Shown in pieces: positions 42,408 to 63,775 of a stretch of DNA of 64,000 nt (positions are counted from its first letter, which is position 1; every line of letters starts with the position of its first letter). Origin of the DNA: Monodelphis domestica (lineage: Eukaryota; Chordata; Mammalia; Didelphimorphia; Didelphidae); assembly GCF_027887165.1 (NCBI RefSeq), contig NC_077230.1, positions 27,925,851 to 27,989,850 of the forward strand, written 5' to 3'. The notes under the pieces are model-generated. The model was not told the origin of the DNA, did not search any database, and was given only the letters and a program-made list of their open reading frames with translations. A program made the translations under genes and the position numbers.

Positions 42408-42412
42408 GATTG
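42408..42412. repeat. Provirus target-site duplication, left copy
   Basis: 'gattg' directly precedes the LTR terminus TGTAGC and is repeated at 51871-51875. A sixth base does not match. Confidence 0.9.
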
Positions 42413-42730
42413 TGTAGCCTCCCGGCCTGCGAGAGGCTGCAAGGGGTGAAAGAGAGGATAGAGATAGAGTAGAAGTATTGATCCCGCGAAGGGCGTGAAC
42501 GAGCCGACTTTAGAGATGTGAATAACCGAGTCAGTAGACAAATATTATTTGTATGAGCCACAGCTAAGCTCCGACCACTGAGTGTGAATATTCAGGCTAA
42601 AACCACCCAATGATCTCGATTTAACACCATACTGGTCAGAGGATAATGCTAGCTCAGATGGAAAGGAGATCAGAAACTGAAGGAGGTAGATAATGCTAGG
42701 TAGCATTAGGAGAAAGAGAGGAAGTAAGGC

Positions 42731-42754
42731 AGGCCTGGCCTAAAGGCCAGGCCT
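42731..42754 (-). other. Perfect LTR hairpin in R/U5
   Basis: 10-bp arms (AGGCCTGGCC and GGCCAGGCCT) with a 4-nt loop, about 85-115 nt downstream of the TATA box in element sense. It is therefore inside the predicted transcript. The same hairpin is at 51488-51511 in the 5' LTR. Confidence 0.9.
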
Positions 42755-42836
42755 TAGTGAGAAAGACAGAGAAGAGAGAGAGAGACAGGCAGGCAGGGGA
42801 GAAGATGTTCAAGTGTGGGGAGCTTGCTGGGGCTCG

Positions 42837-42846
42837 TTTATTTATA
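42837..42846 (-). promoter_or_regulatory. TATA box overlapping AATAAA (3' LTR)
   Basis: Element sense TATAAATAAA. AATAAA is embedded in the TATA box and no second AATAAA lies downstream in the LTR, so R may be short, as in some betaretroviruses. The site doing promoter work is the 5' LTR copy. Confidence 0.75.
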
Positions 42847-43113
42847 GTCTTGACAGCTCAATACATATTGAACAGTTATATGATACCTCAATACATATGG
42901 ATGAGTTACCTGGGGTATTCCCATTGGATAATGCAACTTATGACAAGGTGAAGGTGGGGTTATTATCCCCGGGAGAGTGAGACAAAGGAAAGCCAGGTTT
43001 CGCGCCTAAACTTCAGCCACGCTGGCAATAAAATTTATTGCCATGCACAGGATGGCCATGAGCTCACTCACATTCCTTGTCTCTTCGTAATGCCTATGGT
43101 CTGGACTGCTACA

Positions 43114-43126
43114 TCTCCCCCTTTTT
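43114..43126 (-). promoter_or_regulatory. Polypurine tract
   Basis: Element sense AAAAAGGGGGAGA, directly before the U3 TG. It primes plus-strand DNA synthesis in retroviruses. Confidence 0.95.
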
Positions 43127-44212
43127 GTTTGACACACAAATGAATAGAGTAATATCAAAATGTAACTCAACACACGCTAAGTATAAACACACTGGTGCAC
43201 AATCATAATAATTCAAAGTGAGAAAATCAAACCAGATTATAAAACTCAAATATAAAAATCAAGTGTGAACTTTCTTTCTATCTAAGTGCTTAACAAAATA
43301 ATGATATAAGATATAAAAATGTCAAAAAGAAAAAATAATTTCCATAACACTGATCCTGGTTTCATGAGGTAGAAGTTCTCTGTCTGACAAGATAGGTGCT
43401 TCAGTTAACCACGTCACTCTTCACCAGTCAGAACCATGAGAAGCTGTCAGATCTCATCATGATTAGCAAAACTGACCTCCTCTGGACCTGAAGGATAAAT
43501 GCTTTCCTTCTCTTGAACTGATTCTGCATCTTTGGGATCTATTCGCTCTCACTGCCAGATGCCTGCCACCTAAGAAACTGGTTGGTAGGACGATGCCAGG
43601 ACATCCGGTGACTGAGGGCGTCAGTGCACTATGTCTCTGCATTCCCCAATCTCAAGCATCCATTTCACATGGAAAATGCATCACCGTGGCTTAGGCTGTC
43701 TGGTCCATAATGAAAGATTCATTATGATTCCCGTTGCATGCAATCAGACATCACTCTCCAGAATGGTCAACTGAAAATTAACAATTTCTGTCATGTTCTC
43801 ATGTTTACTGACCGTAAGGTGACTGTAATTCTAGAAATCTTTGCACCTTCATAATTTGGATCAGAGCATTAACAGTACCTTCCTTATACTCAAAGTTCTG
43901 GCCTTAATAGTGTAAAAGAAAAATTCAAGGTTGATCAATCAAAAGTGACTTTAAAAAGTGTCCTCTAAAATATAAATACTGATCTTATAGCAAAATACTG
44001 ATCTCTGTAAAATTTCTTAGAAATACTGATCTGTATAAGATTCCTCTCCCTTTTCTTTTTGATTGTGTGGTGGGAGAGATCCCTTTAAAGAAAAAAAAAA
44101 CATCCTCTCTGAACAATTCAGGAGGGACAGACATGTGACATAGCAAACATGCCTTCATCTTCTCAGTATATAGCAAAGATTGGAATGTAAAATATCATGA
44201 TACTCTGGTCTT
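43127..44212 (-). other. Noncoding region between env and the PPT
   Basis: 1,086 nt with no convincing frame (the best, at 43985-44176, has 63 codons and no family resemblance). Three copies of 'aatactgatct' lie at about 43975-44032. Betaretroviruses can place RNA-export elements near the 3' end of env, so this region may hold one. That is inference. Confidence 0.6.
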
Positions 44213-46213
44213 TCATGGAACGGTCGTGTTCAATTCAACATTTTCAGGCACCAATTGCCTAGTGTGATAAGACCGTGCCAATTCTGGCAGTATGCCTTGA
44301 ATGTAGGCTCTGTTTTTACAGCTTCTGCTGCAAAGTATAATCAAACCCATAGCCAATAATATGAATAAAATGATAGTACCAATGCTGGTTAAGTTAGCTC
44401 TACCAAACCAATTTTGGGGATCTAGGGAAGATAAAGTTGCTTCCCAATTTGCAGCTATGTTTGCAGCTTCATTCTCATATACAATTTGGTCTATTTTGTT
44501 GATCTGCTGTTGCAATTTAATAATGTCCAAGGTGCTGTTATGGCTTCCCCAAGCACCCTTGATGTGCTGAACGACCAGTTGCCATTCATATGACACATTA
44601 TCATATGGCAACGGAGTAATACGATAACCCGTTTGATTGTAATGACAGGGATAAGTAATCCTTGTGTGTAAAGCTTCAACCTCTTTACCTAACCAAAACA
44701 CAGCATCTTTTAGACTGTCCAGCTCATCTCTATAAGCTAAGTCAATACTCTGCTGAGTGTGCCATAATTTGGAAGAGTTAGACACCACTTCCTGTATGAA
44801 CTCATGGTTCTGGATAGAGGAAGTTAATGCCAATGTTGCCGTGGTTAGTGATGTGATCATGGCAATTACTGAGACTACGGCTCCTATAATCTCCAAGACC
44901 ATTCTCTTGGACCTATGTATAACCATGTTAAATGCCTTTTGAACGATGTGCACAGTAGGCGCAGATGCCCACGTCTCTGTCAAGTTGACAGGTACCCACA
45001 TTAAAGGTGGATGATACATGATAGCAACATATGAATCTTGGTGTTTAGGACTAAGGCATTGATGTAGGCGGCATTTTGTGCAGTTGATCTCATATAGACC
45101 TTGGTCATTTTTAAAAATTCGAAGGCTATTACCTACTAGCATTACATAAGGAGCAAAAACACATGCAGTGACATTAACGTGACTGTCATACTCAAGATCA
45201 AGTCCTGAGTTCTTCACCTTGACCTTAAACTTGTATATCGGCTGCGTGGCAGCCACTATCTTCCACTGCGTGTTCTGTATAGGACCTGCTTCAATAGCAA
45301 GTCTAGAACCAGCCATGTCTACTTCTAGTAAGTCCTCAATTTTCTGAAAATTCTGACATGGCATGTGCCATTTCTCATAGTCAGTGTATTTGCCTAATCG
45401 CGTCAGTTGTTCAGAGCGACCACAACGTAACCTGGGTGCCCAATTGTAGATGTTAAAGTCTGTGGTTGCCGGCATCTTAACCTTTCTGGGAACTCGGACA
45501 GAGCAATCTGTCCATGGCAACTCCTTTTGTACCGTACCTATCTGATTTGGACATAGGTACTTGTTAGCCGGGTGTTTAGGTTGGAACGTCTTACGTGCTA
45601 ACTCATCTCCCATTCCTATCACACCCATGCCAACCCCTACATAACTGTTGTCAGTGGCATTTTTGACAATCCACGCTTGATGTCTGCGTGGTACACAGAA
45701 AGAATTACCAATAAACGAATTTCTAAAAGACATACAAAATGGAGGATACACAGTAGATCCTGAATAATTGTACAGAGCTCCTTCAGACTCTAGAGGAACA
45801 CGTTTGGCTAGAATAGGGTGTGGTAGCCAGTCCGTGTTGTTAACATACACCAGAGGGGGCTTGTCCATCCAAGTTAACATTCTCAAAATAGGAGGTTTGG
45901 GCACGATGGACCAGTAGACTTCAGCATGACAGATGTTCAGCAAAGTCAAAATAGTGAATGTCATCAGAGTAAATGTAATGTCAGTGTTCAGAGTGCGTGC
46001 ATTCACCAGTGTTGCCTTCGATCCCGGTGCCCTGCGCTTGACCATCAGGTAGCTGACTGGAGACAGCAGCGATGCTCGTCTGCTTCTCGTCCTGGTCTCG
46101 GGCAGCCGGTGCGGTGCTAGACTGGTGAGCCTGTTCCTCTGCTCCCCTTGCATCTGGAAGCGGTCCCTTCCACGGTTTGAGATGCTTACTGGGAGTCCAG
46201 ATTTCTCCATCAT
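44213..46213 (-). CDS. env: Retroviral Env glycoprotein precursor
   Basis: 666 codons from the first of two adjacent ATGs (46213), which sit directly after a splice acceptor. An upstream ATG at 46231 would be removed by splicing. The long leader (about 97 residues) has an arginine-rich part (SNRGRDRF...TRTRSRRASLL) and a hydrophobic core (TLMTFTILTLL) ending at CHA. SU carries several N-glycosylation sequons. The furin-type site HRSKR precedes the fusion peptide (VLEIIGAVVSVIA). TM has a membrane anchor (IILFILLAMGLIIL) and a tail of about 37 residues. It resembles MMTV/HERV-K-type Envs and lacks the CX6CC motif of gamma-type TMs. There is no internal stop. It overlaps the end of pol by 233 nt in another frame. 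Confidence 0.95.
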   Translation of the reverse strand: MMEKSGLPVSISNRGRDRFQMQGEQRNRLTSLAPHRLPETRTRSRRASLLSPVSYLMVKRRAPGSKATLVNARTLNTDITFTLMTFTILTLLNICHAEVYWSIVPKPPILRMLTWMDKPPLVYVNNTDWLPHPILAKRVPLESEGALYNYSGSTVYPPFCMSFRNSFIGNSFCVPRRHQAWIVKNATDNSYVGVGMGVIGMGDELARKTFQPKHPANKYLCPNQIGTVQKELPWTDCSVRVPRKVKMPATTDFNIYNWAPRLRCGRSEQLTRLGKYTDYEKWHMPCQNFQKIEDLLEVDMAGSRLAIEAGPIQNTQWKIVAATQPIYKFKVKVKNSGLDLEYDSHVNVTACVFAPYVMLVGNSLRIFKNDQGLYEINCTKCRLHQCLSPKHQDSYVAIMYHPPLMWVPVNLTETWASAPTVHIVQKAFNMVIHRSKRMVLEIIGAVVSVIAMITSLTTATLALTSSIQNHEFIQEVVSNSSKLWHTQQSIDLAYRDELDSLKDAVFWLGKEVEALHTRITYPCHYNQTGYRITPLPYDNVSYEWQLVVQHIKGAWGSHNSTLDIIKLQQQINKIDQIVYENEAANIAANWEATLSSLDPQNWFGRANLTSIGTIILFILLAMGLIILCSRSCKNRAYIQGILPELARSYHTRQLVPENVELNTTVP

Positions 46214-49200
46214 CTGTGGAAACACAAGCATATCCTCGACCCATCGTTATTAGTCTGTTCGGACCTCTGTAATCTTTGTCTCCTGGCAATCTCCAAAAAA
46301 CCCAGGGCTGCTGCACCGTGTCCATTGTGTCATGACACTCAAAATGCGTCTGCATAGGTGTAGCATTCAGCCCTTCTGGGATGGAGAAATGATTGAGAGT
46401 TAAAAGTACCATCCTTAACAATTTGTTAGGAATAATAGGTTTGGGTTTAGAGATGTCACCTTCATAAATTGTCAGGTACTCTCCTTTTTGTTTTTGTATC
46501 TGGTTCTTGAGAGTCCTGTTAGCTCTCTCCACTATTGCTTGACCAGTGGAGTTACCTGGAATTCCAGTTTTGTGGTTTATATTCCACAGTTTGCAAAATT
46601 CTGCAAACCTTTTGCTGGTGTATGCAGTACCATTGTCAGTTTTTATCTGACTTGGAATGCCCAAATGCGCAAATGCTTCCAGCAAGTGTGCAATGACATG
46701 AGAAACTTTTTCTCCCGTTTGTGCCGTGGCCCATATGACCCTTGAGTATGTGTCAATTGTCACATGCACATACTTCCACCTTCCAAAAGGAGCATATTGA
46801 GTCACATCCATCTGCCAAAGCTGGTTAGCTTTGAGTCCTCGGGGATTAGCTCCTGGGGGAAGAGGTGTAGAGGAGAACTGGGCACACGAGCCGCATTGCT
46901 GGATTATCTCCTGTGCCTGTCTTTTAGTAATGTCAAATTGGCATTTGAGAGATTTCGCATTTTGGTGCAATAAAGAATGTGATTTAACTGCATCTTGAAA
47001 AGCAGATGCCACTAAGGTATCCACCTTAGCGTTTCCCTCCGAGAGAGGACCAGGGAGGTTAGTGTGTGAACGAATATGTGTTATAAAAAATTTGTTCTGC
47101 CTCTGCCATATCACCATCTGGGTGGTACGGAACAAGAGATATAACTCTTCATCAGGTACAGGTTTAATCTTTGCTGTTTCTAGCGAATTAACCAAATTAA
47201 CCACATATAATGAATCACAGATTATATTACAAGCTTGTACTACATCCCTTAGTACACTGCGAACTGCAGCTAATTCAGCTTTTTGTGGAGAGCCATAAGT
47301 AGTGTCTAATAACATTGTGCTATCCTGGACTACAGCTCCTGCTCTCCCATGTTTTGATGCATCTGTAAAAACGTTCACAGCATCTACAAGAGGATGCATG
47401 GATGTCATTCTTGGAAAAATAATAGGAGTCAATTTTACAAACTGCAGTATCTTATTAGCAGGAATGTGATTATCTATCTGTCCTGTATAATCTGCAAAAG
47501 CAATTTGCCATGGCAAAGACTGTGCAAATAAATTCTGAACTTGCTCTCTTGTTATAGGCACATGAATTGTACTAGGATCTATGCCAGTTAACTGTCTTGC
47601 CCTTTTTCTGATCTGAGTTATCAGTAAAATGATAAGTTCTAGATAGGTAGTGAGGGATTTAGTTTGTTGATTGGCTAAATGAATCCATTCTATGATGTGT
47701 TGGTCCTGATGTAAAGCACCTGTGGGAGTATACCTTGTCTGTAGAACAGACGCTATTAAGGGTAATGATGGATCAATTCTATACAATCTGGCTTTTGACA
47801 CCGCTTCTTCCACTACCTTTAACTCCTCCTCCGCTTTGGGAGACAGCGTTCTAGGGGATGATAAAGCAGCATCTCCTTTTAAAGTGGCATACAGGTTTTC
47901 CAACTGTCCTGTAGAGATTTTTAGAAAAGGTCTGAGCCAATTAATATCACCTAACAATTTCTGGAAGTCGTTCAATGTATTCAGGGAATCTCTACGAATC
48001 TCAATTTTCTGTGGTCGGATCTCTTGATCATACACTAGTGTTCCTAGGTACTTGTAAGGGGGCGTGGTTTGAATCTTTTCCTTAGAGATCACCAGATTTG
48101 CAGCTGTTAAAGCTTTGGTGGCGTCTGAGAGCAATATCTCCACCTCGCCACTAGATGGCGCCGCTAACAGAATGTCATCTACATATTGGATTATGTGATA
48201 TTTTGCGTGTTTATGTCTAACCTTTTCTAGTGCATGACCTACATATTTCTGGCATAAACAGCTGCTTACACGAAGCCCTTGTGGAAGGCACAGCCATTCG
48301 AATCTTTTGAAAGGAGTACCATAATTTATTGAGGGTACAGAGAATGCAAATCTGTGACAATCTTGTGGGGACAGGCGGATATTGAAAAAACAATCCTTCA
48401 AATCTATAACTATCAGCTTCCAGTTTATGGGAATCGGACCCGGGGAAGGTAATCCCGGTTGCCTCGTCCCCATGTCCACTAGCTGTTCATTGATCTTCCT
48501 AAGATCATGGACTAGCCTCCACTTCCCTGCCTTCTTTGGCACTAGAAAAATCGGGGTGTTCCAGGGACTGTTTGATTCTCGTATGTGACCTAAGCTTAAT
48601 TGTTCCTGTATTATGGCCTCTAAATGTACTAATTTCTCCTTAGATATAGGCCATTGGTTAATCCAAATGGGTTTGGAACTTAACCACGTGATAGGGTCAG
48701 CGAATAGCGGGGCGATGCTTGCCGCACCCACAAATTCTGTGTGCAGTTTGTCCGATGTGGTCAATGTTATGTTCATTGCGGACATCACCTCTCTGCCCCA
48801 AAGAGATTGGGCAATATCTAGTACATAAGGTTTAAATATACCTCTATGTCCTTCACTATCAGACCACGATAAAGTATTCGCTGATTGGAGAATGTGCTCA
48901 GGAGTGCCTATGCCTATTAACTTCTGGTGAGGTTCAATGACTTCCCATGATTCTGGCCAATCCGTAGCAGAGATCACCGAGATGTCTGCTCCAGAATCCA
49001 GGATGCCTGAGATAACCCTGTCTTCTACAAACAAAGACATTACCATCCTATCCTGAGTCACTTTTTGAGACCAAAACAATCCATGGGCTGTGGAGTCAAG
49101 GCTGCTTTTTTGAAGCTTGCTCTTTAGAGAGAAATCAGCTTCAGGGAATATGGTCAAGTAAGCTAGATTGGTGTCCTTTGAAATGCAAAATGCTGGCTTT

Positions 49201-49469
49201 GCAGCAGCCAGGATGTGGAGCCCATTGGTCTCCTTATCCTGAAACAATGTAGGAAAGATTTCTAAACCTTTTGCAATGAGGTCAGGGTCGCCTAGTATTA
49301 ACCCTTTAACACCTTGAGGTACTGGAAAACGAAAGCTAGCTGGAATCCAAGTCGGTTCTGACTTCTCTCTTAGTACTATGCTTTCGGCTGCAATTATAGG
49401 GAATCGAAAAGAACACCTCATGGTTCTGCCCTGATTTACTCCTGGGCTCAAGGCTGGCCCGAAGTCTAG
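45981..49469 (-). CDS. pol: Fused protease-reverse transcriptase-RNase H-integrase
   Basis: A single frame of about 1,162 codons, entered by -1 frameshift from gag. Numbering from 49451: a dUTPase-like segment without its catalytic motif (about 45-105), PR active site LDSGADIS (151-158), and RT with the first Asp in VIDLKDCFF (D350) and YVDD (423-426). RNase H has D697, E726, D746 and D811. IN has HHCC (H825, H829, C853, C856) and D882, D939, E975 with 35 residues between the last two. PR and RT share one frame without a G-patch, unlike typical betaretroviruses with separate pro and pol frames. The RT block after LPQG reads LRVSSCLCQ instead of the usual NSPT-type sequence. No stop occurs before the natural end, inside the env overlap. 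Confidence 0.95.
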   Translation of the reverse strand, partial: LDFGPALSPGVNQGRTMRCSFRFPIIAAESIVLREKSEPTWIPASFRFPVPQGVKGLILGDPDLIAKGLEIFPTLFQDKETNGLHILAAAKPAFCISKDTNLAYLTIFPEADFSLKSKLQKSSLDSTAHGLFWSQKVTQDRMVMSLFVEDRVISGILDSGADISVISATDWPESWEVIEPHQKLIGIGTPEHILQSANTLSWSDSEGHRGIFKPYVLDIAQSLWGREVMSAMNITLTTSDKLHTEFVGAASIAPLFADPITWLSSKPIWINQWPISKEKLVHLEAIIQEQLSLGHIRESNSPWNTPIFLVPKKAGKWRLVHDLRKINEQLVDMGTRQPGLPSPGPIPINWKLIVIDLKDCFFNIRLSPQDCHRFAFSVPSINYGTPFKRFEWLCLPQGLRVSSCLCQKYVGHALEKVRHKHAKYHIIQYVDDILLAAPSSGEVEILLSDATKALTAANLVISKEKIQTTPPYKYLGTLVYDQEIRPQKIEIRRDSLNTLNDFQKLLGDINWLRPFLKISTGQLENLYATLKGDAALSSPRTLSPKAEEELKVVEEAVSKARLYRIDPSLPLIASVLQTRYTPTGALHQDQHIIEWIHLANQQTKSLTTYLELIILLITQIRKRARQLTGIDPSTIHVPITREQVQNLFAQSLPWQIAFADYTGQIDNHIPANKILQFVKLTPIIFPRMTSMHPLVDAVNVFTDASKHGRAGAVVQDSTMLLDTTYGSPQKAELAAVRSVLRDVVQACNIICDSLYVVNLVNSLETAKIKPVPDEELYLLFRTTQMVIWQRQNKFFITHIRSHTNLPGPLSEGNAKVDTLVASAFQDAVKSHSLLHQNAKSLKCQFDITKRQAQEIIQQCGSCAQFSSTPLPPGANPRGLKANQLWQMDVTQYAPFGRWKYVHVTIDTYSRVIWATAQTGEKVSHVIAHLLEAFAHLGIPSQIKTDNGTAYTSKRFAEFCKLWNINHKTGIPGNSTGQAIVERANRTLKNQIQKQKGEYLTIYEGDISKPKPIIPNKLLRMVLLTLNHFSIPEGLNATPMQTHFECHDTMDTVQQPWVFWRLPGDKDYRGPNRLITMGRGYACVSTDDGEIWTPSKHLKPWKGPLPDARGAEEQAHQSSTAPAARDQDEKQTSIAAVSSQLPDGQAQGTGIEGNTGECTHSEH
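46214..46231 (-). promoter_or_regulatory. env splice acceptor
   Basis: Element sense 'gcttgtgtttccacag' is followed at once by ATGATGG. It is a good pyrimidine tract plus CAG, so the spliced RNA would start env at its first bases. Paired with the donor at 51007. Confidence 0.8.
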
Positions 49470-50989
49470 TTTAACTGGGTGTTAGACCCTGTGTTGGGAA
49501 GACTTCGCTTATTGCCAGCTCTGCACTCAGAAGCCCAATGCCTGCCCTTTCCGCATTTGGGGCAGATATCTGGAGTCTTTCCTGATCTTTTATTTGGACA
49601 TGCTCTACGATAGTGACCTCTCCTGCCGCACGCATGGCATAGCCCTCTAAGCATTCTTGGCTGCTCTTGTACTGTTAAAATAGTTCTTGTCTCACCCATG
49701 CCTATGTCTTGGCAAGCTCTTAAAAAATCTGTCAGGGTCCCTGTAGCTTTAATGGGAGCTAAAGCTCTTCTGGCCTGTTCATTAGCATTTAAAAAAGCAA
49801 GGTCCCTAATGAGAACCTTAGCTGCATCTTCATGAGGGATATGTCTGCGGACTTCTGTACTGAGCCTATCCACAAAGTCAGCGAAAGATTCGTTCTGCTT
49901 TTGGATGATCTCTGTGTACAGGCTCTCTGAATCCTTCCCGGGTAGGGCTCTCCATGCCTTAGTAGCCGCGCTGGCTATCTGGTTAAAAACCTGCTCTGTG
50001 GCTGCGATTTGCCTAGCAATTGGTTCGAATTCTCCTTGCCCTACCAATTGTTCAAAGGGCACGTTGATTCCTGCCTGCCTGTTCTCGGAGGCCTGCAGGG
50101 AACATAGATCATGGAATTTCAGTTTCCAGGTCAGATAGTCACCTCCGCTGAGGGCGGACTCGGCTGCCAGGTACCAGTCAGCCGGTGTGAGTGTCTGTTG
50201 AGTCAGATTACTGAGGAGCGCTAATGTGAATGGAGCGATTGCCCCGTTTTTCAATACGCTGCTTCTGAGCATTTTCAAGACCTTACAGTCTATGGGCTTA
50301 TGCTGGGCAATGCGTCTGTTGGCATCCTCAGGGTCCTCTATATACCTGACTGGGAAAGCAGAAATGTCCTCCTTGCCTTTTTGAGTAGGCGAGATCGGCT
50401 CATTCCTGAGTGAATCAGGCTTAGAAACTTCAGGCGAGCAAGGTGGGGGTGGGGTGGCCACGAGAGAGGCTCGTGAAGCCAACCCGTAGTCTGGGGGAGG
50501 GGTGGGAGGGGGAGGGGTCAGAGTGTTTAGAGAAGGATACAGCCTTGGAGTTGTAAATGACTCTTTTGTTTTACTCTCCTTTGAATTATAGCCTGGGGCC
50601 TCTGGAGGATCCCCAGACCATCCTGAACACTCTCCTTCCCTTCCCCCATCAGTCTCCTCAGGAGCAGTGCGTTTGAGATCCTGCTTTTTAAATTCCTGAG
50701 TCTGTGGAGATTCCTTCTCCCCTGCAGTATAGGTACGAGTAGCTAAATCCTCTAGAACAGTTCTGATAATTGACCAGGTGTTAAATACCGTTTTCCTGAC
50801 TCTGTTACCTTCCTTTTGATAGTCCTTTAAGGATTGTCCTATACGGTCCCATTGAGCAACTTCTAGCGTCCCCATAGATGGGAAGGCTGGGAAAGCCTTT
50901 TGAATTACTTGTAGCAAGGCTTTGATCTGCGCTTTAGAGACCTTCCTACCTCCCTGTTAACCTGCATGGGAGGAAATAGTCAAACCCAT
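49466..50989 (-). CDS. gag: Gag polyprotein with an early in-frame stop
   Basis: Likely ATG at 50987-50989 (MGLTISS..., a myristoylation-type start), but a TAA at 50957-50959 follows after ten codons. The same frame is then open to 49466. Numbering from 50917: matrix-like region (1-60, with WDRIGQSLKDYQ), a proline-rich linker with PPDY (141-144, a PPxY late-domain motif), capsid from about FPVRYIED (188), the major homology region (QNESFADFVDRL, 341-352) and two zinc knuckles CX2CX4HX4C (427-440, 452-465). Size and layout are betaretroviral. Unless the stop is bypassed or internal initiation occurs, this copy makes no normal Gag. The stop may also be a sequencing error or allele. Confidence 0.92.
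49469..49475 (-). promoter_or_regulatory. -1 ribosomal frameshift site GTTAAAC
   Basis: Element sense G TTA AAC in gag phase, directly followed by the gag TAG (49466-49468). The -1 frame is then open into pro-pol. Eight nt downstream, GGGC (49460-49457) can pair with GCCC (49447-49444), a candidate stem. GTTAAAC fits the X XXY YYZ class only in its last six bases and is known from arterivirus frameshifting. Confidence 0.75.
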
Positions 50990-51000
50990 CTCTGAGAACA

Positions 51001-51009
51001 ACTCACCTT
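51001..51009 (-). promoter_or_regulatory. Major splice donor
   Basis: Element sense AAG|GTGAGT, a perfect consensus, in the leader 18 nt before the gag ATG. The exon ends at 51007. Confidence 0.85.
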
Positions 51010-51148
51010 CCGTTGGCCAGACTCGAAGGGCTTGTTCTCTGGCTTCGTCCCGCCTAGCCTGAGAAATCCTTCGCGTCTCGGGGCGCGCCCTCCCTACTGC
51101 TGTGAGAAATAAAGGTAGAATGCCAAAAGAAAGTGGCAGGTGTGAGTT

Positions 51149-51166
51149 CTAGCCACGTTGGGGCCA
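51149..51166 (-). promoter_or_regulatory. Primer binding site, tRNA-Lys-like
   Basis: Element sense TGGCCCCAACGTGGCTAG, three nt after the LTR. It resembles the tRNA-Lys(CUU) complement used by several betaretroviruses but lacks one base near its 5' side and diverges at the end. Another tRNA cannot be excluded. Confidence 0.7.
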
Positions 51167-51487
51167 GTATGTAGCCTCCCGGCCTGCGAGAGGCTGCAAG
51201 GGGTGAAAGAGAGGATAGAGATAGAGTAGAAGTATTGATCCCGCGAAGGGCGTGAACGAGCCGACTTTAGAGATGTGAATAACCGAGTCAGTAGACAAAT
51301 ATTATTTGTATGAGCCACAGCTAAGCTCCGACCACTGAGTGTGAATATTCAGGCTAAAACCACCCAATGATCTCGATTTAACACCATACTGGTCAGAGGA
51401 TAATGCTAGCTCAGATGGAAAGGAGATCAGAAACTGAAGGAGGTAGATAATGCTAGGTAGCATTAGGAGAAAGAGAGGAAGTAAGGC

Positions 51488-51511
51488 AGGCCTGGCCTAA
51501 AGGCCAGGCCT
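51488..51511 (-). other. Perfect hairpin at the 5' end of the viral transcript
   Basis: Same 10-bp arms and 4-nt loop as at 42731-42754. In this LTR it falls in the RNA leader. Confidence 0.9.
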
Positions 51512-51593
51512 TAGTGAGAAAGACAGAGAAGAGAGAGAGAGACAGGCAGGCAGGGGAGAAGATGTTCAAGTGTGGGGAGCTTGCTGGGGCTCG

Positions 51594-51603
51594 TTTATTT
51601 ATA
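51594..51603 (-). promoter_or_regulatory. TATA box of the proviral promoter
   Basis: Element sense TATAAATAAA, with a CCAAT box about 75 bp upstream (plus-strand attgg near 51680). Confidence 0.8.
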
Positions 51604-51870
51604 GTCTTGACAGCTCAATACATATTGAACAGTTATATGATACCTCAATACATATGGATGAGTTACCTGGGGTATTCCCATTGGATAATGCAACTTATGA
51701 CAAGGTGAAGGTGGGGTTATTATCCCCGGGAGAGTGAGACAAAGGAAAGCCAGGTTTCGCGCCTAAACTTCAGCCACGCTGGCAATAAAATTTATTGCCA
51801 TGCACAGGATGGCCATGAGCTCACTCACATTCCTTGTCTCTTCGTAATGCCTATGGTCTGGACTGCTACA

Positions 51871-51875
51871 GATTG
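51871..51875. repeat. Provirus target-site duplication, right copy
   Basis: 'gattg', identical to 42408-42412. Confidence 0.9.
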
Positions 51876-51934
51876 AGGTGGGTAGATTTAGCCTGAGTAT
51901 CTATCCTGACAATGTTAGTCAAAGCTAATGTATC

Positions 51935-52108
51935 TGAGGCAGCTGAGTAGGGAAAAGAACACCACTTTGGGCATCAGAAGACACATTTGATTTCTAGCTT
52001 CCCTGCTAATTAGCTTGGCTTGTTGGCTAATACAAGTCACTTCTCTGTAAAGTGGGATTAATGGTACTGACCCATTTTACTTTGCTCTCAGAAATGCTTT
52101 GTAAATTA
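51935..52108 (+). mobile_element. tRNA/CORE SINE, diverged
   Basis: 'gaggcagctgagtaggga' through 'cacttctctgtaaagtggga' keeps the head and core order of the SINE/MIR families. Confidence 0.6.
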
Positions 52109-52162
52109 GTAATGGATGGTGTCAACATGACTTGTTACTTTTATTGTATACTTTTATGTATT

Positions 52163-52285
52163 CATTCATTCAACAAGCATTTCCTTAAGATATTACTCTA
52201 TGTAAAGTCCTGGAGTTACAAAGAAAAAATCAGTAGCAGTCTCTGTCTTCAAGGAGCTTTTATACTCCAGAAGGGATACAATATA
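52163..52285 (-). mobile_element. MIR3/CORE-like SINE remnant
   Basis: 'cattcattcaacaagcattt' through 'tcttcaaggagctttta' is an inverted SINE tail, related to 37886-38005. Confidence 0.55.
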
Positions 52286-52487
52286 TTCATAGATGAATGA
52301 ATACAAATTAGATGGAAAGGGGAATAAGTTTACTGATAAACAGGATATCAGCAAAGGCCCCCAAGTAGAACTATAAAGAAAGAAATACATAGAGATGAGT
52401 AGAAAAAGATGAATGAGGTGTGAAGAAGGGAATAAATTCCAGGTACTTCAAAATGTAGGTGGAAGGGGAAAGGTGAAAAGGGACACT

Positions 52488-52688
52488 AATTTATTAAGTA
52501 CCTATTATGTGCAAGGCACTGTGCTAAGTGCTTTACAAATCATTCTCTCATTTGATCCTCAAACAACTCTTAAGAGATTTTACCATTGAGGAAATAAGAA
52601 GATATGGCCCAGTGTCACATAGCTAGTAAGTGGCTGAGGCCAAATTTGAACTCAGATCTTACTGACTCCAGACCAATCCCACCATCCA
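52488..52688 (-). mobile_element. MIR/CORE SINE
   Basis: 'aaggcactgtgctaagtgct', 'catttgatcctcaaaca' and 'gtgtcacatagctagtaa' run in inverted order. Nearly full length. Confidence 0.85.
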
Positions 52689-53455
52689 CTCCTCCAATAT
52701 GAATTCAGGGAACATAAAGTAGGATAGTTTGCCTGAAATAAAGATTGGAATATGAGCAATAAAATGGAATGTTTGGAAATATTGGTTAAAGCCAGATTAT
52801 GAAGGGCTTTAAGTGAATGATGTTTACTTTATTATAGAAGTAAGAAAGAGTCAGTGGAGAGTTTTAGAAAGAGAACAATATAGTCAGACAAAAGTCTTTT
52901 CAATTGAAAAACATTTATTTCCCTTTTTTCCTTAACTACCTTTTCAATGGGGAACAAGAAAAAGAAACATTTCTATAGCATATATCGATAGTTATGTGCA
53001 ACATATTCTAAAGTCCCAAGTCCAAAAATGTATCTCATTTTGCATATATAGAATCATCTCTCTATCATCAGATTAATTAGACAATGAGCTTTTATTACAG
53101 TGTAACATGAATTATATAGGCATTGGGAACAAGAAGGGCAAAAAAACAAATAAAAGGTCTTTGAACTAAAAAAAAAACTCACAGGTTAATAGGGAAAACA
53201 GTATGCAAAAAACTACAAAAAAACAAATACTCGGAATCAATTGGAGCTTGTCTCGGAATAAAAGTAAGGAGAACTGAGAATGTTTTGATGTGGAAGGTGG
53301 GATTTTATTTGATATTTGAAAGAAGCCAGGGGAAGAAGCTAGAGATAAGGAAGGAGAACATTCTAGTCATGGAGAACAGTTAGTGAAAATGCTTGGAAGA
53401 GGGAGATTGAATGTTGTGGATAGCATTCCTCTTTGGTCCTCTGATGAATGGTCAT
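52689..53455. other. Unclassified AT-rich DNA
   Basis: No gene or repeat recognised. Confidence 0.4.
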
Positions 53456-53690
53456 TTAGATAATCTTTCAAAGTTGTCTCAAAGTTGTTAACTTACAAAA
53501 TGCTATTATATGTTGTTTTTCTGGTTATGCTCTCTTTGGTATACATTAATTTATATAAATCTTTTTGGGTTTTCCTGAATCTTAGTCACTTCATATTTTC
53601 TTATAGCACAATCATATTCTATCGCCTTTATAGATTGTAATTTGTCCAACCATTCCCTAGCTGATGAACACCCCAATAGTCCAAAAAAGA
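53456..53690 (-). mobile_element. Old L1 3' end
   Basis: 'cttatagcacaatcatattc' and 'tttgtccaaccattcccta' match the inverted end of L1 ORF2 and its 3' UTR. Decayed. Confidence 0.55.
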
Positions 53691-53754
53691 CAAAAATACA
53701 AACCAAAATAAAAGGATTGTACATAATTGATCTGAACTTCCATAGCTTTTCTTC

Positions 53755-53915
53755 TTCCTTCCTTTTTTCCTTCCTTCCTTCCTTCTTTCCTTCCTTCCTT
53801 CCTTCCTTTCTTCATTTCCTTCCTTCCTTTCTTCATTTCCTTCCTTCATTTCCTTCCTTCCTTCCTTCCTTCCTTCCTTCCTTCCTTCCTTCCTTCCTTC
53901 CTTCCTTTCTTCCTT
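53755..53915 (-). repeat. (CCTT)n microsatellite
   Basis: A CTTC/CCTT array with several interruptions (TTCATTTC units), equivalent to (GGAA)n on the minus strand. Confidence 0.95.
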
Positions 53916-55096
53916 CTTCCCCCTAAGATGAGAAAAGGGCAAATCCAACCAAATAGCAGGGTAAGAAGAGAGGTACAATGGATGGATCAAAGAAATTTGA
54001 TTATTCCTCTGGCAATACCAAGAGAGAAATAAATAATTTCTTAGTGGAGCCCTCAAATGATTAAATAGTGATTAAAACCTTGGCACATGGATAGGATTCA
54101 ATGACTTGACATAGGTATATTCATGAATTACAGTAACCTTAAAGAAAAAAGACAGTGTTGAGCTTTACAAGTAAATAGTAGGAAGTTTTTTGTGTGTGTT
54201 TGTTTTGTTTTTGTTTTTACACTGCAAAAGTCAACCGGAGTCATAAACTTATCCTATTTCACCAGAAGCTTGGCAGAGTTCCTAGCCATAAATGAACAAA
54301 TCAACATCATAAAGATAGAAAAGTATTTGGTAGGAGATGGAGTTTCCAAGTTTACTCCAAAGCAAAATGAGATTTTTTTGTTTCGTTTGTAGTTTTGATT
54401 TTTAAAATATATTGAAACTGTTCTAAAAGCTTGTAAAATGCCCTTCTACTTAGACCATTGTGGTTAAAAGCACATTCTCTAGGGTGGGGCATACTGGCCT
54501 ACTTACTCACTCACATTGCCTAGAAAAATGAGGGAATATTTTAAATTTACTGGAAAATTGCTATACCTCTTTTTCACTTTGGACTGCAAGATGAGATTAG
54601 AGAGAGAGACAGCAGACATAAAGACAGAAAGACAGAGAGAGAAAGAGAGAGACAGAGGGGGGGATAGGGGATGGAAGGAGAGAGAGAAAAACATTACCCA
54701 AAAGAGGAAATATATTTGAGATGTTTCAGTGTTCTAATGCTTTAGGCCAGTCTCTTATGGGGAATTAACTCATCTTTTTAGCTAAAGTTGTCACTAGTGA
54801 ATACATCAATCTGTCCTGGATATATTTCCATATTCACTATTACTTGGAGGTGAAAATCTTCTGCTTTTAGGCCCTCTCTACCTAGAAATCCCATTGTTAG
54901 AGTGTAGGGAACTATTTATCTTTCTTCTTTACCTTGTTCAACTATCCCTTCAATTCCTTGCACCCCTATGTTAGTAGGTTTTAATTTTTGTCTACAATTG
55001 GCTCAGCCAATTCATACTTCAGTCCAATGAATTTTGGATTCCTCTTGGTCTTTCTATTGTACAGCTTACTCTTCACAAATCATGTTACCTTTAAAA
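53916..55096. other. Unclassified DNA
   Basis: Includes a short GA-rich stretch near 54600-54690. Nothing else recognised. Confidence 0.4.
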
Positions 55097-55115
55097 TTAA
55101 AAATTAATTTTAGAA

Positions 55116-56743
55116 ATACAAAGGAAGGTGGCCTTGCAGGCCCAGATCTCAAACTATACTATAAAGCAGTGATCATCAAAACAATTTGGTACTGGCTAAG
55201 AGACAGAAAGGAGGACCAATGGAATAGACTTGGGGTAAGTGACCTCAGCAAGAGAGTCCATGACAAACCCAAAGACCCCAGCTTTTGGGACAAAAAATCC
55301 ACTATTTGACAAAAACTGCTGGGAAAATGAAGACAGTGTGGGAGATTAGGTTTGGATCAACACCTCACACCCTACACCAAGATAAACTCAGAATGAGTGA
55401 ATGACTTGAACATAAAGAAGGAAACTATAAGTAAACTAGGTGAACACAGAATAGTATGCATGTCAGACCTGTGGGAAGGGAAAGACTTTAAAACCAAGCA
55501 AGACATAGAAAGAGTCACAAAATGTAAAATAAACAATTTTGATTATATCAAATTAAAAAATTTTTGTACAAACAAAACCAATGTAACCAAAATTAGAAGG
55601 GAAGCAACAAATTGGGAAACAATCTTCATTACAAAATCCTCTGACAAAGGTCTAATTACTCAAATTTATAAAGAGCTAAATCAATTGTACAAAAAAATCA
55701 AGTCATTCTCCAATTGGTAAATGGGCAAGGGACATGAACAGGCAGTTTATAGCCAAAGAAATCAAAACTATTAATAAGCACATGAAAAAGTGTTCTAAAT
55801 CTCTGATAATCAGAGAGATGCAAATCAAAACCACTCTGAGGTATCACCTCACACCTAGCAGATTGGCTAATATGACAGCAATGGAAAGTAATGAATGCTG
55901 GAGGGGATGTGACAAAGTTGGAACATTAATTCATTACTGGTGGAGATGTGATTTGATCCAACCATTCTGGAGGGCAATTTGGAACTATGCCCAAAGGGCG
56001 ACAAAAGAATATCTACCCTTTGATCCAGCCATAGCACTGCTGGGTCTGTACCCCAAAGAGATAATAAGGAAAAAGACATGTACAAAAATATTCATAGCTG
56101 CGCTCTTTGTGGTGGCAAAAAATTGGAAAATGAGAGGAGGCCCTCTAATTGGGGAATGGCTGAACAAATTGTGGTATATGTTGGTGATGGAATACTATTG
56201 TGCTAAAAGGAATAATAAGGTGGAGGAGTTCCATGGAGACTGGAACAACCTCCAGGAAGTGATGCAGAGCAAGAGGAGCAGAACCAGGAGAACATTGTAC
56301 ACAGAGACTGATACACTGTGGTACAATGGAACATAATGGACTTCTCCATTAGTGGCAATACAATGTCCCTGAACAATCTGCTGCGATCAAGGAGAAAATA
56401 AAAACACTACCCTCAAGCAGAGGACAAATGGGGGGGGGGGGGGAGGGGAGTAAAAACACTGAGGAAAGGCAACAGCTTGACTACAGGGGTGGAGTGGATA
56501 TGATTGAGGAGAGACTCTAAATGAACAACTGTAAACCTCAAAATTTCCAACATTTATAAGTCTAAGAAATTTTGAGGTTTACACAACTTAATGAAAAGAC
56601 CAACAACATGGAAAAGAGTTTGGACCGAGGACACATATGATACCCAGAGGAATCATGCATCACCATTGGGGGGGGGGGGAGAAAAAGAAAATGATCTTTG
56701 TTTCTAATGAATAATGTTTGAAAATGACCAAATAAAATAATGT
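55116..56743 (+). mobile_element. 5'-truncated L1
   Basis: Plus-strand L1 from inside RT to the 3' end. ORF2 pieces at 55116-55309, 55397-55720 and 55734-56336 are separated by a frameshift near 55310, a TGA at 55394-55396 and a stop near 55721. The last piece keeps the Cys motif with one Cys-spacing residue changed (CWRGCDKVGTLIHYWWRC, H-C-W became H-Y-W). A perfect 19-bp target duplication (55097-55115 and 56744-56762, beginning 'ttaaaaattaatttt') fixes the ends. The 3' UTR carries a poly-G run (56431-56444) and a foreign palindrome at 56530-56583. Confidence 0.93.
56530..56583. repeat. 54-bp near-perfect palindrome nested in L1
   Basis: 18-bp inverted repeats (TGTAAACCTCAAAATTTC at 56530-56547 and its exact complement at 56566-56583) with an 18-nt loop. 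It is flanked by 'caac' on both sides (56526-56529 and 56584-56587). It is absent from the matching 3' UTR positions of the L1s at 5421 and 12505. Confidence 0.9.
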
Positions 56744-56889
56744 TTAAAAATTAATTTTAGAACCATTCTTTTCCTTTCTTTCCCCTTACCTTTTATTGAG
56801 GTCTGGTCCCATGTTGTCTATATTTCTCCAATGAAAACCTCACTAAGCTTCCCAGCTCTGTCTAATTCAAGTACCTAACAATGGGCTAG

Positions 56890-57510
56890 GGCTGGGTGGT
56901 GGGAAGCCAAAACCATTTTCGCTAGAATTTTTGAGATTAGGACATCAGTGTGTATCTAGGAAATTTGCAAAGTTGACTGACAGCCCTCAAACCAAGATTC
57001 TACAGAACTGTCTGGGTCAGGATTCTAAGACAGTTAGGCAGCTGGGAAACTTTTCTCTGAAGCTGGGATTCAAGTCAGAGAGGCTGTGTGTCAGTCTCCT
57101 TGAAGAAATCACCTTTGAAGCTGCCTAACTTGGACTATCCTCAAGAAAAAAGGTTGAGTGGGAGTTTCCCATTCACTCTGGTGGGCAGATGTAATTTGGG
57201 TGTGAACTTCCTCCCTTCCAGGATCTTGTAAGGACCCTTCATATGGATTCTTCAGGCTGGCCCTACCAAGGCCTCTGGAGTTTGTGAGAATCTGAACCTC
57301 TTTTGGACTTTATCTTTTATTTTCCCTTTAGATAGGTTAAGCTTAGATTACAAAACCTTAGTGAGTTAAATATTTGGGTGGGTTATAGTTAGTTGGGCCC
57401 TCAACCCCTGTCATTTCCTTACTCTTTTATTTAATAAAACTGTTTTTATAAATTTGTGTGATCCCTTCCTTCAAACCTTCCCTTCCTCAAAATTCCCATA
57501 TAACAAGTGT
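56890..57510 (+). mobile_element. Candidate solo LTR
   Basis: GC-richer, and ends after 'cttttatttaataaaactgt' (AATAAA) and a C/T-rich U5-like segment. Terminal bases and target duplication were not resolved. Confidence 0.4.
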
Positions 57511-58286
57511 GACCAGGTGATTGATGGTAAAATATAGACAAAATACATGAACTACCAATAAAGATTTCCCAATTATTCCTTGAAACCACGCTTTAGGTTA
57601 GATCAAAGAAGCTACTAAAATTCACAAGCAGTATCTATACATGAAAAGAAAAAAAATAGAAAATAGAGAAAAAAATCCCTATATGATTCAAGCCAAGCAC
57701 ACACACACAAATAAGGAAGCATCTATTTTCTACATATTTCAAATAAAACAGTTCTTTGGTTTTGACATGTTTATTAAAATCTTCCCAGTTTTTCTGTTTG
57801 GAGAAGAGTCCAAATCTTAGATTTACCAGCCTCTATTTAGTACTAGCTAATAGTCTGCCAAGCAATGTTCTTTCCATGTTTATGAGGTTGTTATTGATTT
57901 ATTTTTTTGTTATTTGATTTAATGAATCAGAACTAGACACAAAGACATATATTTAAGGAGTTTTCAAACCACAAGAGGCCAAAAGCTTGATAAATTGTGA
58001 GAATGGTACATTCCTTGGTTCTTCAAATTGAATGAAGTCCCCAAACTTTTTAACATAATAGTTATATTACTACCTTTTATATAAAAAATTAAATGAACCT
58101 GTGCAAGATTTAAATAATTGGAATCCTTATATTAGGATGATCTTTTTCTTGAGAAAAGGAAAATTCCTAAAATAATTTTAAATTAGGAGAAAAATGTTAT
58201 AATTTAATTCATTGCATGTTTTTTCAGATATTGAAATTCCCTACAGATGCCTTTCATTTATTAAAATTAGAAAGGGTTAGGGTTTC
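57511..58286. other. Unclassified AT-rich DNA
   Basis: I recognise nothing here. Confidence 0.4.
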
Positions 58287-58497
58287 TTCCTTCCTTCCTT
58301 CTTCCTTCCTTCCTTCCTTCCTTCCTTCCTTCCTTCCTTCCTTCCTTCCTTCCTTCCTTCCTTCCTTCCTTCCTTCCTTCCTTCCTTCCTTCCTTCCTTC
58401 CTCCTTCCTTCCTTCCTTCCTTCCTTCCTTCCTTCCTTCCTTCCTTCCTTCCTTCCTTCCTTCCTTCCTTCCTTCCTTCCTTCCTTCCTTCCTTCTC
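58287..58497 (-). repeat. (CTTC)n microsatellite
   Basis: A 210-bp array with two short interruptions, equivalent to (GGAA)n on the minus strand. It continues directly from the tail of the SINE at 58498. Confidence 0.97.
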
Positions 58498-58660
58498 TTC
58501 CATCTTAGAATCAATAATATTGTGTATTGGTGCAGAAGAGTGGGAGGGGCTAAGCAATGGGGGTTAAGTGACTTGCCTAGTCATCAACAAGGAAGTATAT
58601 GAGGCCAAATTTGAACCCTGGATCTGGCTCTCAATTCCCTGGGCCACCTAGCTGCCCCTA
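58498..58660 (-). mobile_element. tRNA/CORE-type marsupial SINE
   Basis: Inverted copy: 'catcttagaatcaataatat', 'caatgggggttaagtgactt' and 'gccacctagctgcccc'. A small internal deletion removes part of the 'cccagggtcacacagc' block. Confidence 0.85.
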
Positions 58661-60574
58661 CTTAAATTGTTTATTAAGCAGTTTTTGAAACTGCATATAA
58701 ACCTGTCATGGTAAAAACACAAAATAGCAGAAATTATGCTTGCAGGAAATGAACCACAAATATCTACACTTGTCCCATAATACATAGTTAAAATACCATT
58801 GTCTAGGAGATTTTCAAATGCTTTCTGGAAGTATAATCATATACATTTCAATGAATCTAATTAATTTTTCATACTTTAATTATGAGTTAATTGTCCAATG
58901 GGAAAATTTTCCCATATATGGTGGAGAGTAGATGAGTGAAGGGAATTGTCAACTAAAATTCCATCCGTTAAGGTCATTCCTGTCATGGGAACTTCTAATA
59001 TCTACTAGCAACTTTTGTATATCTTATAGACTTGGGGATTTGCTTGGACACATGAAATGTCAAATGCATAATCCATGGACACCAGTCTAGTATGAGTGAG
59101 AGGCATGCCTTGAATACAAAATGACTTCTCTTCTCCCTGAAACATACTACTTATTTAGGATGAATATTCTTTTTTGAAAATTGAAGTATTGAACTTTGTG
59201 ACTTTGTTATTGTACAGCAGAGTTAAATAGAAAGAACTAGAGCTATCAACTTGTGACCTTTTCTATGGCTTTTTAGCTTGGCTCTTTAACATAAAAATAA
59301 AGAAACTCTCTCCACTCTGACTTGATGGGTAGAGATTTATTTTCTAATCTTTTGGGATGTCTGTAATGGTTATGAGATAGGGTTACTGAGCCTTGGTGTG
59401 ACATCCCTGAAAATTGAATATTCCAAAGGCCATCTTGAGGAGTTAGAGGTATTTCATTTGAGACTAGTTGAAATGATCACCTTAGTAACACTAGATTCTA
59501 AACTATATCTCTTTCTGGAGCATTCACTTTTCACTGTGTAGCCCTTTGAAGGGAGGAAGGATATGTTAAAGGGTCATACATTATTTTCTATTTTCTAATG
59601 GGTGTTTTTGAAGAGATGACCATATAATGAGCCACAATAATCTGAAAATTCTAATGTGAAAATATGAGTCTCTCAACATTTTTCCTTCATGGAAGGGCTT
59701 AGAAATATGGAGGGTGGATCTGGGAGCATAGGGAAAGAGACTGGTTGGTTGGGAGGAAACTTTAGTGGAATTGTGAACTGTACCACTAACATTTTCTGAA
59801 GTGTTCTCCAAAGAGGCCATTCAGAGGATTTCATAACCTGTTTATATCTCCTTTTTCCTTCAGAGTTAAGCAAATATTGTTCCCCCAAAAAGGAAAAAAA
59901 AATCTTTCTTTGGTTAAATGATGGAACTTTTTGTTTTTTTTCCCCCCCTGAGGTTTTGTTCCATCTAAGCAAAAGTCTCCTGGATAGACTCTCGGGGAAT
60001 ATGAAAAGCAGGATGCCCTGTTTTAAACTGCTAAAGGAAAATAGTATTTCCTCCCAAGTTTTGAACCTGGGCCAAATATGGTCAGTGCAAGGCTAGAGAG
60101 GATGTAAAAGGAGAGGAATAATGAATTCCTGTTTATAGGAGCAGTTGTTTGGGGAAACCTGGGAAATTGTTTGGAATAACTGCATTTGCTAAAAGCAAAT
60201 TTGTCCTTTTGGTTTGTTTGTTTTAGAAAGCAAGGGTTGACTGATTTAATCAATGTAAACAGAGGAAGAACTAATGTAAAGGAATATATACCCAACTTCC
60301 AGTCAAGTGTATCTATTATTCTTTCCAAGTATAAGATATTTTCTCCACCTTTAAGAAACTTAGAATCTAGTTGTATAAATAAAATATTGACATAATAGAA
60401 AGTTTAATGTAATTAAGTGTTAAATTATATGGGTAGACTTTAAGAAGTCTAGAAGCTCAAAATAGAAGCTCAAAGAAGAAAGAAATCAATGAGTACTCAA
60501 GTAGCCAGAGAAGTTCTTAGAAATCAGGTTGGATATATGACTAGGAAGTTTAATAAATCAATAAAATGGGATGC
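58661..60574. other. Unclassified DNA
   Basis: AT-rich with small chance frames on both strands (for example 59581-59972 and 60023-60395). No repeat or gene family recognised. Confidence 0.4.
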
Positions 60575-60745
60575 CAGAGGTGAGAATGACCTCAAAAGTT
60601 AAGTAGTTGAAGCATTATTTGACAGATGAACACATGCACCAAAAGAAGTGATGTTATTTACCCAAGATCATAGTGACAGAAAAACAGGATTTCTCTTGCA
60701 GCTCTCAATGACATGCTTTTTCCACTATGTACTCTGTTCCTTAGC
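60575..60745 (-). mobile_element. MIR-like SINE remnant
   Basis: 'atttgacagatgaacacatg' and 'gttatttacccaagatcata' are in inverted MIR order. Confidence 0.5.
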
Positions 60746-60979
60746 CTTTTCCCATACCATAATTAATTAATATTAATATGCATATATATTCTCAAATAAT
60801 TGATATAATATTTAAAGTTATAATTAAAATAATATACTAACATATGCATGTGTGTCATACTATGTCATATTGCTTTTAGTGGAAAGAGCACTATGTCTAA
60901 TACTAGAGAGATCAAATGGCGTTTTTGTGTGTTAGCTAAATATTTGCATATGACCTTAAGTTTTAACCTTGGGAAATAT

Positions 60980-61127
60980 AGAGCTATCATTATTAGGATT
61001 GTATAAGTAATGAAATTGAGGCTGATAGAAGTTAAGTAATTTGTCCAGGGAAACATAATAAGTAAGTATCTGAAGCTGAATTTGAACTCAGGTCTTAATT
61101 CCAGGCTCAATGATATTTCACTAGGTT
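60980..61127 (-). mobile_element. MIR-like SINE remnant
   Basis: 'aatgaaattgaggctgatag', 'taatttgtccagggaaacat' and 'gaatttgaactcaggtctta' are in inverted MIR order. Confidence 0.7.
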
Positions 61128-61562
61128 TTCATGGGAAGCAGAGAATTTGGAGGAATTTAAATAGTGTTTTTTTTTTATTTGTTGTTGTTTGCTGAGTAGT
61201 AAAAGAATCCAAAGGGAAAGGAAGAAACAAATCAAAGTAAATGAGAAATTTATATTTTAGACAAAACATTTGTTCACATTAGTAACTCTTTGTAACAACA
61301 TATTCACTAAAAAACCCCAGTTGATCCTATAATCAGGAAGTACTCAAACTTCTAAGAGTGATGATTAAGAAATATCAATAATGTGCTTCTTGGGGTCATT
61401 GTTGGCAACAGAATATCCATTTAGAAATACCATACAGCTGGCAAAATAAGGTAACTGGTAATATGTGTGGTAAAGGCTCATAAGAGAATATCAGAACATA
61501 CTTGCCTTGTTAAAAAATGTTACCTTTTCAGAAGTGATTTAGAAAAACTCAGTAATGAAGTC
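61128..61562. other. Unclassified AT-rich DNA
   Basis: No feature recognised. Confidence 0.4.
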
Positions 61563-61757
61563 AAGGAAGGAAGGAAGGAAGGAAGGAAGGAAGGAAGGAA
61601 GGAAGGAAGGAAGGAAGGAAGGAAGGAAGGAAGGAAGGAAGGAAGGAAGGAAGGAAGGAAGGAAGGAAGGAAGGAAGGAAGGAAGGAAGGAAGGAAGGAA
61701 GGAAAGAAGGAAGGAAGGAAGGAAGGAAGGAAGGAAGGAAAGAAGGAAGGAAGGAAG
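61563..61757 (+). repeat. (GGAA)n microsatellite
   Basis: About 195 bp, almost pure with two GAAA interruptions. It adjoins a SINE end at 61758. Confidence 0.97.
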
Positions 61758-62002
61758 CATTTATTAAGTCCCTACTATGTTCCCTGAATTGTGCTAAGCA
61801 TTTTATAAATATCTCAGTTAATCCTCATACAAGCTCTGGGAGGTACTCAACATTATTATCTTCATTTTAAATATTTGGACATCTTGGCAGGCAGATTAAG
61901 TAATTTGTTCAGAAGCACAGAGCTAGTAAATTTCTAAGGCAGACAATGAACTCGTCTTCCAGATGCAGGATGCTACCTGCTGTACCACCTAGCTGCCCTA
62001 TA
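61758..62002 (-). mobile_element. MIR/CORE SINE
   Basis: 'catttattaagtccctacta', 'gaattgtgctaagcatttta' and 'ccacctagctgccct' run in inverted order, nearly full length. Confidence 0.85.
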
Positions 62003-62902: not shown

Positions 62903-62917
62903 AGTGTGTGTGTGTGT

Positions 62918-62979
<62 letters not shown>
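62903..62979. repeat. (TG)n microsatellite
   Basis: TG units with one TATG interruption. Confidence 0.97.
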
Positions 62980-62980
<1 letters not shown>

Positions 62981-63453: not shown

Positions 63454-63469
63454 ATATCAAGGGTTGGGG

Positions 63470-63678: not shown

Positions 63679-63723
<45 letters not shown>

Positions 63724-63744
63724 TATATATTTGACATATATATG

Positions 63745-63775
<31 letters not shown>
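63679..63775. repeat. (TA)n-rich SINE tail
   Basis: Interrupted TA repeats lie between the SINE body and the right target duplication. Confidence 0.9.

What the first reader, a model, noticed from the sequence alone, without database searches (positions are those of the whole stretch)
42408..51875. Very young, structurally complete class II provirus in a marsupial genome
Seen: two 701-bp LTRs that read as identical, perfect terminal inverted repeats, a perfect 5-bp duplication, PBS, PPT, splice sites, and open pro-pol and env with all catalytic motifs. Known: LTRs are identical at integration and diverge with time. Inferred: the insertion is very recent, its family may still be active or have infectious relatives, and this copy may be polymorphic.
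Basis: partly seen in the sequence, partly recalled or inferred. Interest (0 to 1): 0.9.

Follow-up and report, generated by a model that had tools for sequence, protein, structure and literature searches.

The report
Young but broken endogenous retrovirus
A complete-looking retrovirus copy landed in this animal's genome recently, but its first gene is cut short by a stop signal, so this copy itself is probably not infectious; it is mainly of interest as a fresh member of a poorly known family with an unusual gene layout.

Summary
The provirus is real and lies on the minus strand. Its two 701-bp LTRs are identical (701 of 701), with 6-bp inverted termini, a GATTG duplication, a PPT and a splice donor. 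Pro-pol (1166 codons) and env (677) are open. It keeps more CpG (observed/expected 0.415) than its flanks (0.109, 0.078, 0.053), which supports recent insertion independently of the LTRs.

"Structurally complete" does not hold: gag has an in-frame stop at codon 11. Against HERV-K, the envelope TM loop lacks one cysteine and RT motif B lacks its NSP. The primer site fits lysine tRNA only with gaps.

Best reading: a class II ERV inserted within about the last million years (recalled rate), defective as it stands. Host, other copies and polymorphism could not be checked because the genome search did not complete. Young class II proviruses with identical LTRs are already reported from marsupials.

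The parts
42408..42412 (.). target-site duplication GATTG, left copy
51871..51875 (.). target-site duplication GATTG, right copy
51170..51870 (-). 5' LTR, 701 bp; CCAAT at 51684, TATAAA at 51603, AATAAA at 51796 and 51599
42413..43113 (-). 3' LTR, identical to the 5' LTR
51149..51166 (-). primer binding site, closest to tRNA-Lys1,2 but with gaps
   Evidence: tRNA ends recalled
51001..51009 (-). splice donor pattern AAG|GTGAGT
49466..50989 (-). gag frame; ATG at 50989, in-frame stop at codon 11 (50957-50959), open again 50956-49466 (496 codons): MA, CA, two CCHC zinc knuckles
49428..49475 (-). candidate -1 frameshift signal: GTTAAAC (49475-49469), gag stop TAG (49468-49466), H-type pseudoknot (49460-49428)
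45981..49481 (-). pro-pol in one open frame, 1166 codons
49131..49388 (-). dUTPase-like domain, motif residues changed (motifs recalled)
48750..49073 (-). protease (DSG), aligned to residues 1-109 of chain 3sqf (M-PMV protease by recall)
46995..48737 (-). reverse transcriptase and RNase H, 277 of 581 aligned residues identical to chain 7sr6 (labelled Polymerase; HERV-K RT by recall)
46005..47000 (-). integrase: HHCC and D, D, E motifs
44213..46246 (-). env, 677 codons stop to stop, HERV-K-type SU and TM, furin site RSKR at 44914-44903
43114..44212 (-). 1099-bp tail without a long frame between env stop and 3' LTR, ending in the PPT (43126-43114)

Best explanation
A class II (betaretrovirus-like, HERV-K-side) endogenous provirus that integrated recently, within about the last million years under a recalled mammalian rate, and is defective as it stands. 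Shown: identical LTRs, target duplication, high CpG, open pro-pol and env, gag cut at codon 11. Inferred: the LTR promoter makes a full-length RNA primed by a lysine-type tRNA. One -1 frameshift at GUUAAAC, helped by a pseudoknot, makes Gag-Pro-Pol with pro and pol fused. A spliced RNA makes Env. The 1.1-kb tail serves RNA export or is a neutral passenger. Because gag is broken, this copy was either helped in trans by intact relatives or lost gag after it landed; which of the two is not resolved.
For: LTRs 701/701 identical, GATTG on both sides. CpG o/e 0.415 (191 CpG) against 0.109, 0.078 and 0.053 in the flanks and 0.219 in the neighbouring L1. No LTR difference gives 95% upper ages of 2.14, 0.97 and 0.53 My at recalled rates of 1e-9, 2.2e-9 and 4e-9. 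Gag, pol and env domains of class II type. RT-RNase H scores 601 bits to 7sr6 (labelled Polymerase, HERV-K RT by recall) against 166 for the next chain; TM matches a chain labelled endogenous retrovirus group K. Gag stop at codon 11, in a stretch lying before residue 25 of a solved 666-residue Gag. Pseudoknot score reached by 4 of 2000 shuffles and 3 of 2000 random 60-mers (I had seen the pseudoknot by eye before setting the search ranges).
Against: No other copy and no empty site was seen, so family activity is not shown. LTR conversion or an assembly error could fake identity. 1-kb windows over the L1 reach CpG o/e 0.35-0.38, so high CpG is not unique to the provirus, and the virus may have started CpG-rich. 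The gag stop could be a sequencing error. The RT motif B, TM cysteine and PBS departures are many for a young copy; they may be family traits or predate the insertion.
Confidence: 0.82

Rival explanations
1. The provirus is fully intact and replication-competent; the gag stop is a sequencing error, is read through, or is bypassed by another start.
For: Pro-pol and env are open, and identical LTRs suggest youth.
Against: In-frame TAA at codon 11; the next in-frame Met is codon 39, within MA. TM loop cysteine missing, RT motif B altered, PBS imperfect.
Confidence: 0.07
2. An older provirus whose LTRs were made identical by gene conversion or by assembly.
For: Several departures from conserved motifs.
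Against: CpG content well above the flanks and open frames of 1166 and 677 codons; LTR conversion explains neither.
Confidence: 0.07
3. A co-opted host gene (env or pro-pol kept by selection).
For: Open env with furin site and TM.
Against: Both LTRs present and identical; a kept gene would usually lie in an older, eroded provirus (general knowledge). No selection test was possible without relatives.
Confidence: 0.02

Closest known systems
HERV-K(HML-2)
   Same: RT-RNase H 277 of 581 aligned residues identical to 7sr6 (labelled Polymerase, HERV-K by recall); SU and TM match the chains of entry 9nnd, whose TM is labelled endogenous retrovirus group K.
   Different: TM loop lacks one Cys of the 9nnd TM. 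A HERV-K G-patch is named in a passage of PMC11459146; none was found here. That HERV-K has separate pro and pol frames and a dUTPase is recalled.
Marsupial betaretrovirus clades MEBrv 1-5 (PMC11334065: abstract, passages, sections 7 and 12 read)
   Same: Class II; MEBrv 1 and 5 are reported with intact ORFs and identical LTRs.
   Different: LTRs are 453, 469 and 373 nt for MEBrv 1, 3 and 5 and not given for MEBrv 2 and 4 (Table 3), against 701 here. Sequences were not compared.
KERV-1 (kangaroo; PMC2736999 and PMC5711953, passages read)
   Same: HERV-K/MMTV-related marsupial ERV with 5-6 nt target duplications and signs of recent activity.
   Different: No sequence was available for comparison.
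SERV-K/MER11 of macaques (PMC11379458, passages read)
   Same: HERV-K-type virus with a non-coding stretch of roughly 1 kb between env and 3' LTR.
   Different: There the stretch derives from HML-8 and was shown to act as an RNA export element; origin and function of the tail here are unknown.

Membership tests
class II ERV | pol related to alpha/beta/delta/lenti RT rather than gamma or spuma | tested here: met
   Best RT match 7sr6 (HERV-K by recall), 601 bits, then chain 5ovn and HIV-2 RT at 166 and 161 (best 60 of 181 shown). A match table, not a tree.
Betaretrovirus genus | two CCHC zinc knuckles in NC | tested here: met
   (CX2CX4HX4C twice)
Betaretrovirus genus | Gag, Pro, Pol in three frames (-1/-1) | tested here: not met
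   Pro and pol share one frame; pattern from PMC1224870 section 9, which also counts 22% '0' at pro-pol among betaretroviral ERVs
Betaretrovirus genus | dUTPase in pro (PMC3621094, passage) | tested here: inconclusive
   A remnant aligns to chain 2d4l, a dUTPase (M-PMV by recall; E 9.5e-5), but the recalled motif residues differ
Betaretrovirus genus | G-patch after protease | tested here: not met
   PR homology ends at pol residue 244, RT homology starts at 247-249; no Pfam or motif hit. PMC1224870 says a G-patch is degenerated or missing in some betaretroviruses.
Betaretrovirus genus | lysine tRNA PBS (PMC3621094, passage) | tested here: inconclusive
   Best of 7 recalled tRNA ends is Lys1,2 (score 26; next 21), but with gaps
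HERV-K-type envelope | SU and TM related to HERV-K | tested here: met
   9nnd TM E 3.5e-24, 9nnd SU E 3.8e-22; Pfam HERV-K_env_2 E 2.2e-6
MEBrv 1-5 | sequence clustering with a clade | not testable with these tools
   no sequences of these clades were found in a collection I could search
replication-competent provirus | open gag with Met-Gly start | tested here: not met
   stop at codon 11

The most novel reading that the evidence does not exclude
A distinct, recently active class II lineage with a lentivirus-like translation plan (one -1 frameshift into a fused pro-pol) that has shed the G-patch and inactivated its dUTPase, and carries an acquired 1.1-kb RNA-export tail. The clean protease-RT join suggests a lineage trait, not damage to one copy.
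Probability: 0.35. Interest if true: 0.65.

Novelty: new member of a known kind. Interest (0 to 1): 0.4.

Why it matters
A recent insertion can be used to time a retroviral invasion and to look for polymorphism. If the layout is a family trait, it shows that a betaretrovirus-like virus can do without the G-patch, a working dUTPase and the second frameshift. It would also be another HERV-K-like virus with a large non-coding segment between env and LTR.

Tried and rejected
Own-genome search with the LTR failed on all 11 tries, so copy number, host and empty sites stay unknown. Three viral-contig scans (RT, TM, RT alignment) matched 4, 3 and 50 stretches by pattern, none confirmed as a relative, so no RT or TM tree could be built. 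AlphaFold of the dUTPase-like domain from one sequence gave pLDDT 39 and is uninformative. Rfam: no match at gathering score in the window; 3 and 5 weak matches, all below gathering score, in LTR/leader and tail. The tail shows no unusual folding (10 of 10 windows, z -0.98 to 0.92) and no second copy in the window at E <= 1e-3. A loose Pfam search of the dUTPase-like part failed twice because the second region given held stops and was not repeated. NCBIfam gave 6 transposase or RT matches for pol, all under their cut-offs, and none for gag or env. I make no claim that this lineage is unpublished; the 8 paper searches were.

Full report
What is there. A provirus fills 42408-51875 on the minus strand. 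Its LTRs (51170-51870 and 42413-43113) are identical over 701 of 701 bp, begin and end with TGTAGC/GCTACA, and are bounded by GATTG on both sides. Behind the 5' LTR come a 3-base spacer, a primer site, a splice donor pattern (51009-51001) and the gag start; before the 3' LTR lies a purine tract.

Genes. Stop to stop, the minus strand holds gag (49466-50956, 496 codons), pro-pol (45981-49481, 1166) and env (44213-46246, 677). Pfam at E <= 0.01 finds Gag_p10, Gag_p24 N and C, zinc knuckles, RVP, RVT_1, thumb, RNase H, integrase domains, GP41 and HERV-K_env_2. Protease DSG, RT YVDD, RNase H acidic motifs, integrase HHCC and the integrase D, D, E stretches are present (motif meanings are general knowledge). 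Env has a furin site, RSKR.

What is broken. The gag ATG lies at 50989 with Met-Gly, and an in-frame TAA follows at codon 11; the next in-frame Met is codon 39. The part after the stop aligns from residue 25 of a solved 666-residue Gag, so the amino end of matrix lies before the stop. The second cysteine of the ERV-K TM loop is absent. RT motif B keeps LPQG and one Ser, but not the NSP of 7sr6. The primer site matches tRNA-Lys1,2 best of seven recalled tRNA ends (score 26; next 21), but only with gaps. Gag alone makes this copy unlikely to be infectious; the other three may be family traits.

Age. No difference in 701 bp gives 95% upper ages of 2.14, 0.97 and 0.53 My at 1e-9, 2.2e-9 and 4e-9 per site per year (rates recalled). 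CpG o/e is 0.415 in the provirus, and outside it 0.109 (1-5782), 0.219 (the L1, 5783-11736), 0.078 (11737-42407) and 0.053 (51876-64000). LTR conversion would not produce that, so the recent age has two supports. Two caveats: the virus may have started CpG-rich, and single 1-kb windows over the L1 reach 0.35-0.38.

Relatives. RT-RNase H is 277 of 581 identical to chain 7sr6 (601 bits; next chain 166). That entry is labelled only 'Polymerase'; that it is HERV-K RT is recalled. Integrase matches solved retroviral integrases (best 225 bits). Protease matches chain 3sqf and the dUTPase-like part matches 2d4l (both M-PMV by recall). SU and TM match entry 9nnd, labelled endogenous retrovirus group K. 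The best Gag match, 8c9m, is labelled only 'Gag protein' (171 bits); chains labelled group K score 79-81. None of the 60 chains shown is labelled as RT of MMTV or M-PMV, so the nearest virus is not settled, and no tree was built.

Layout. Gag ends at GTTAAAC-TAG; downstream an H-type pseudoknot scores as high in only 4 of 2000 shuffles and 3 of 2000 random 60-mers of the window. It is a simple pair score, and I had seen the pseudoknot by eye before setting the ranges. One -1 shift there enters a frame that runs through dUTPase-like domain, protease, RT and integrase. The dUTPase-like part aligns with 2d4l (E 9.5e-5), but the aligned residues of the recalled motifs are changed. Protease homology ends at residue 244 and RT homology starts at 247-249, leaving no room for a G-patch. 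PMC1224870 (passages and section 9 read) gives -1/-1 for MMTV and JSRV, -1/0 for HIV, and notes betaretroviruses with a degenerated or missing G-patch. It also counts 22% '0' at pro-pol among betaretroviral ERVs, with the warning that later indels blur this. So single traits have precedent, and the combination is what stands out.

Tail. Between env stop and 3' LTR lie 1099 bp; the longest frame listed inside is 72 codons. GC is 0.369, CpG o/e 0.24, and folding is unremarkable. In macaque SERV-K/MER11 a stretch of similar size and place is an RNA export element (PMC11379458, passages). That is a lead, not a test.

Limits. The own-genome search did not complete. For Australian marsupials, class II proviruses with identical LTRs are already reported (PMC11334065, sections 7 and 12), so a young class II provirus as such is not new.

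Verdict. Young: well supported. Complete: no. New member of a known kind, with a layout worth checking in other copies.

Noticed in passing
5783-11736: Long L1 on the minus strand with open ORF1 (350 aa) and ORF2 split into pieces; other stretches of the window resemble parts of it at 81-93% identity.
   Followed up: partly
51645-51446: A 200-nt LTR stretch starting just upstream of the TATA box folds unusually well (z -3.43); it holds a GGCCTGGCC/GGCCAGGCC hairpin.
   Followed up: no
13638-13769 and 14297-14428: Exact 132-bp direct duplication, start to start 659 bp.
   Followed up: no
18710-19242, 58286-58501, 61563-61757: Long tetranucleotide arrays (GAAA, CTTC, AAGG).
   Followed up: no
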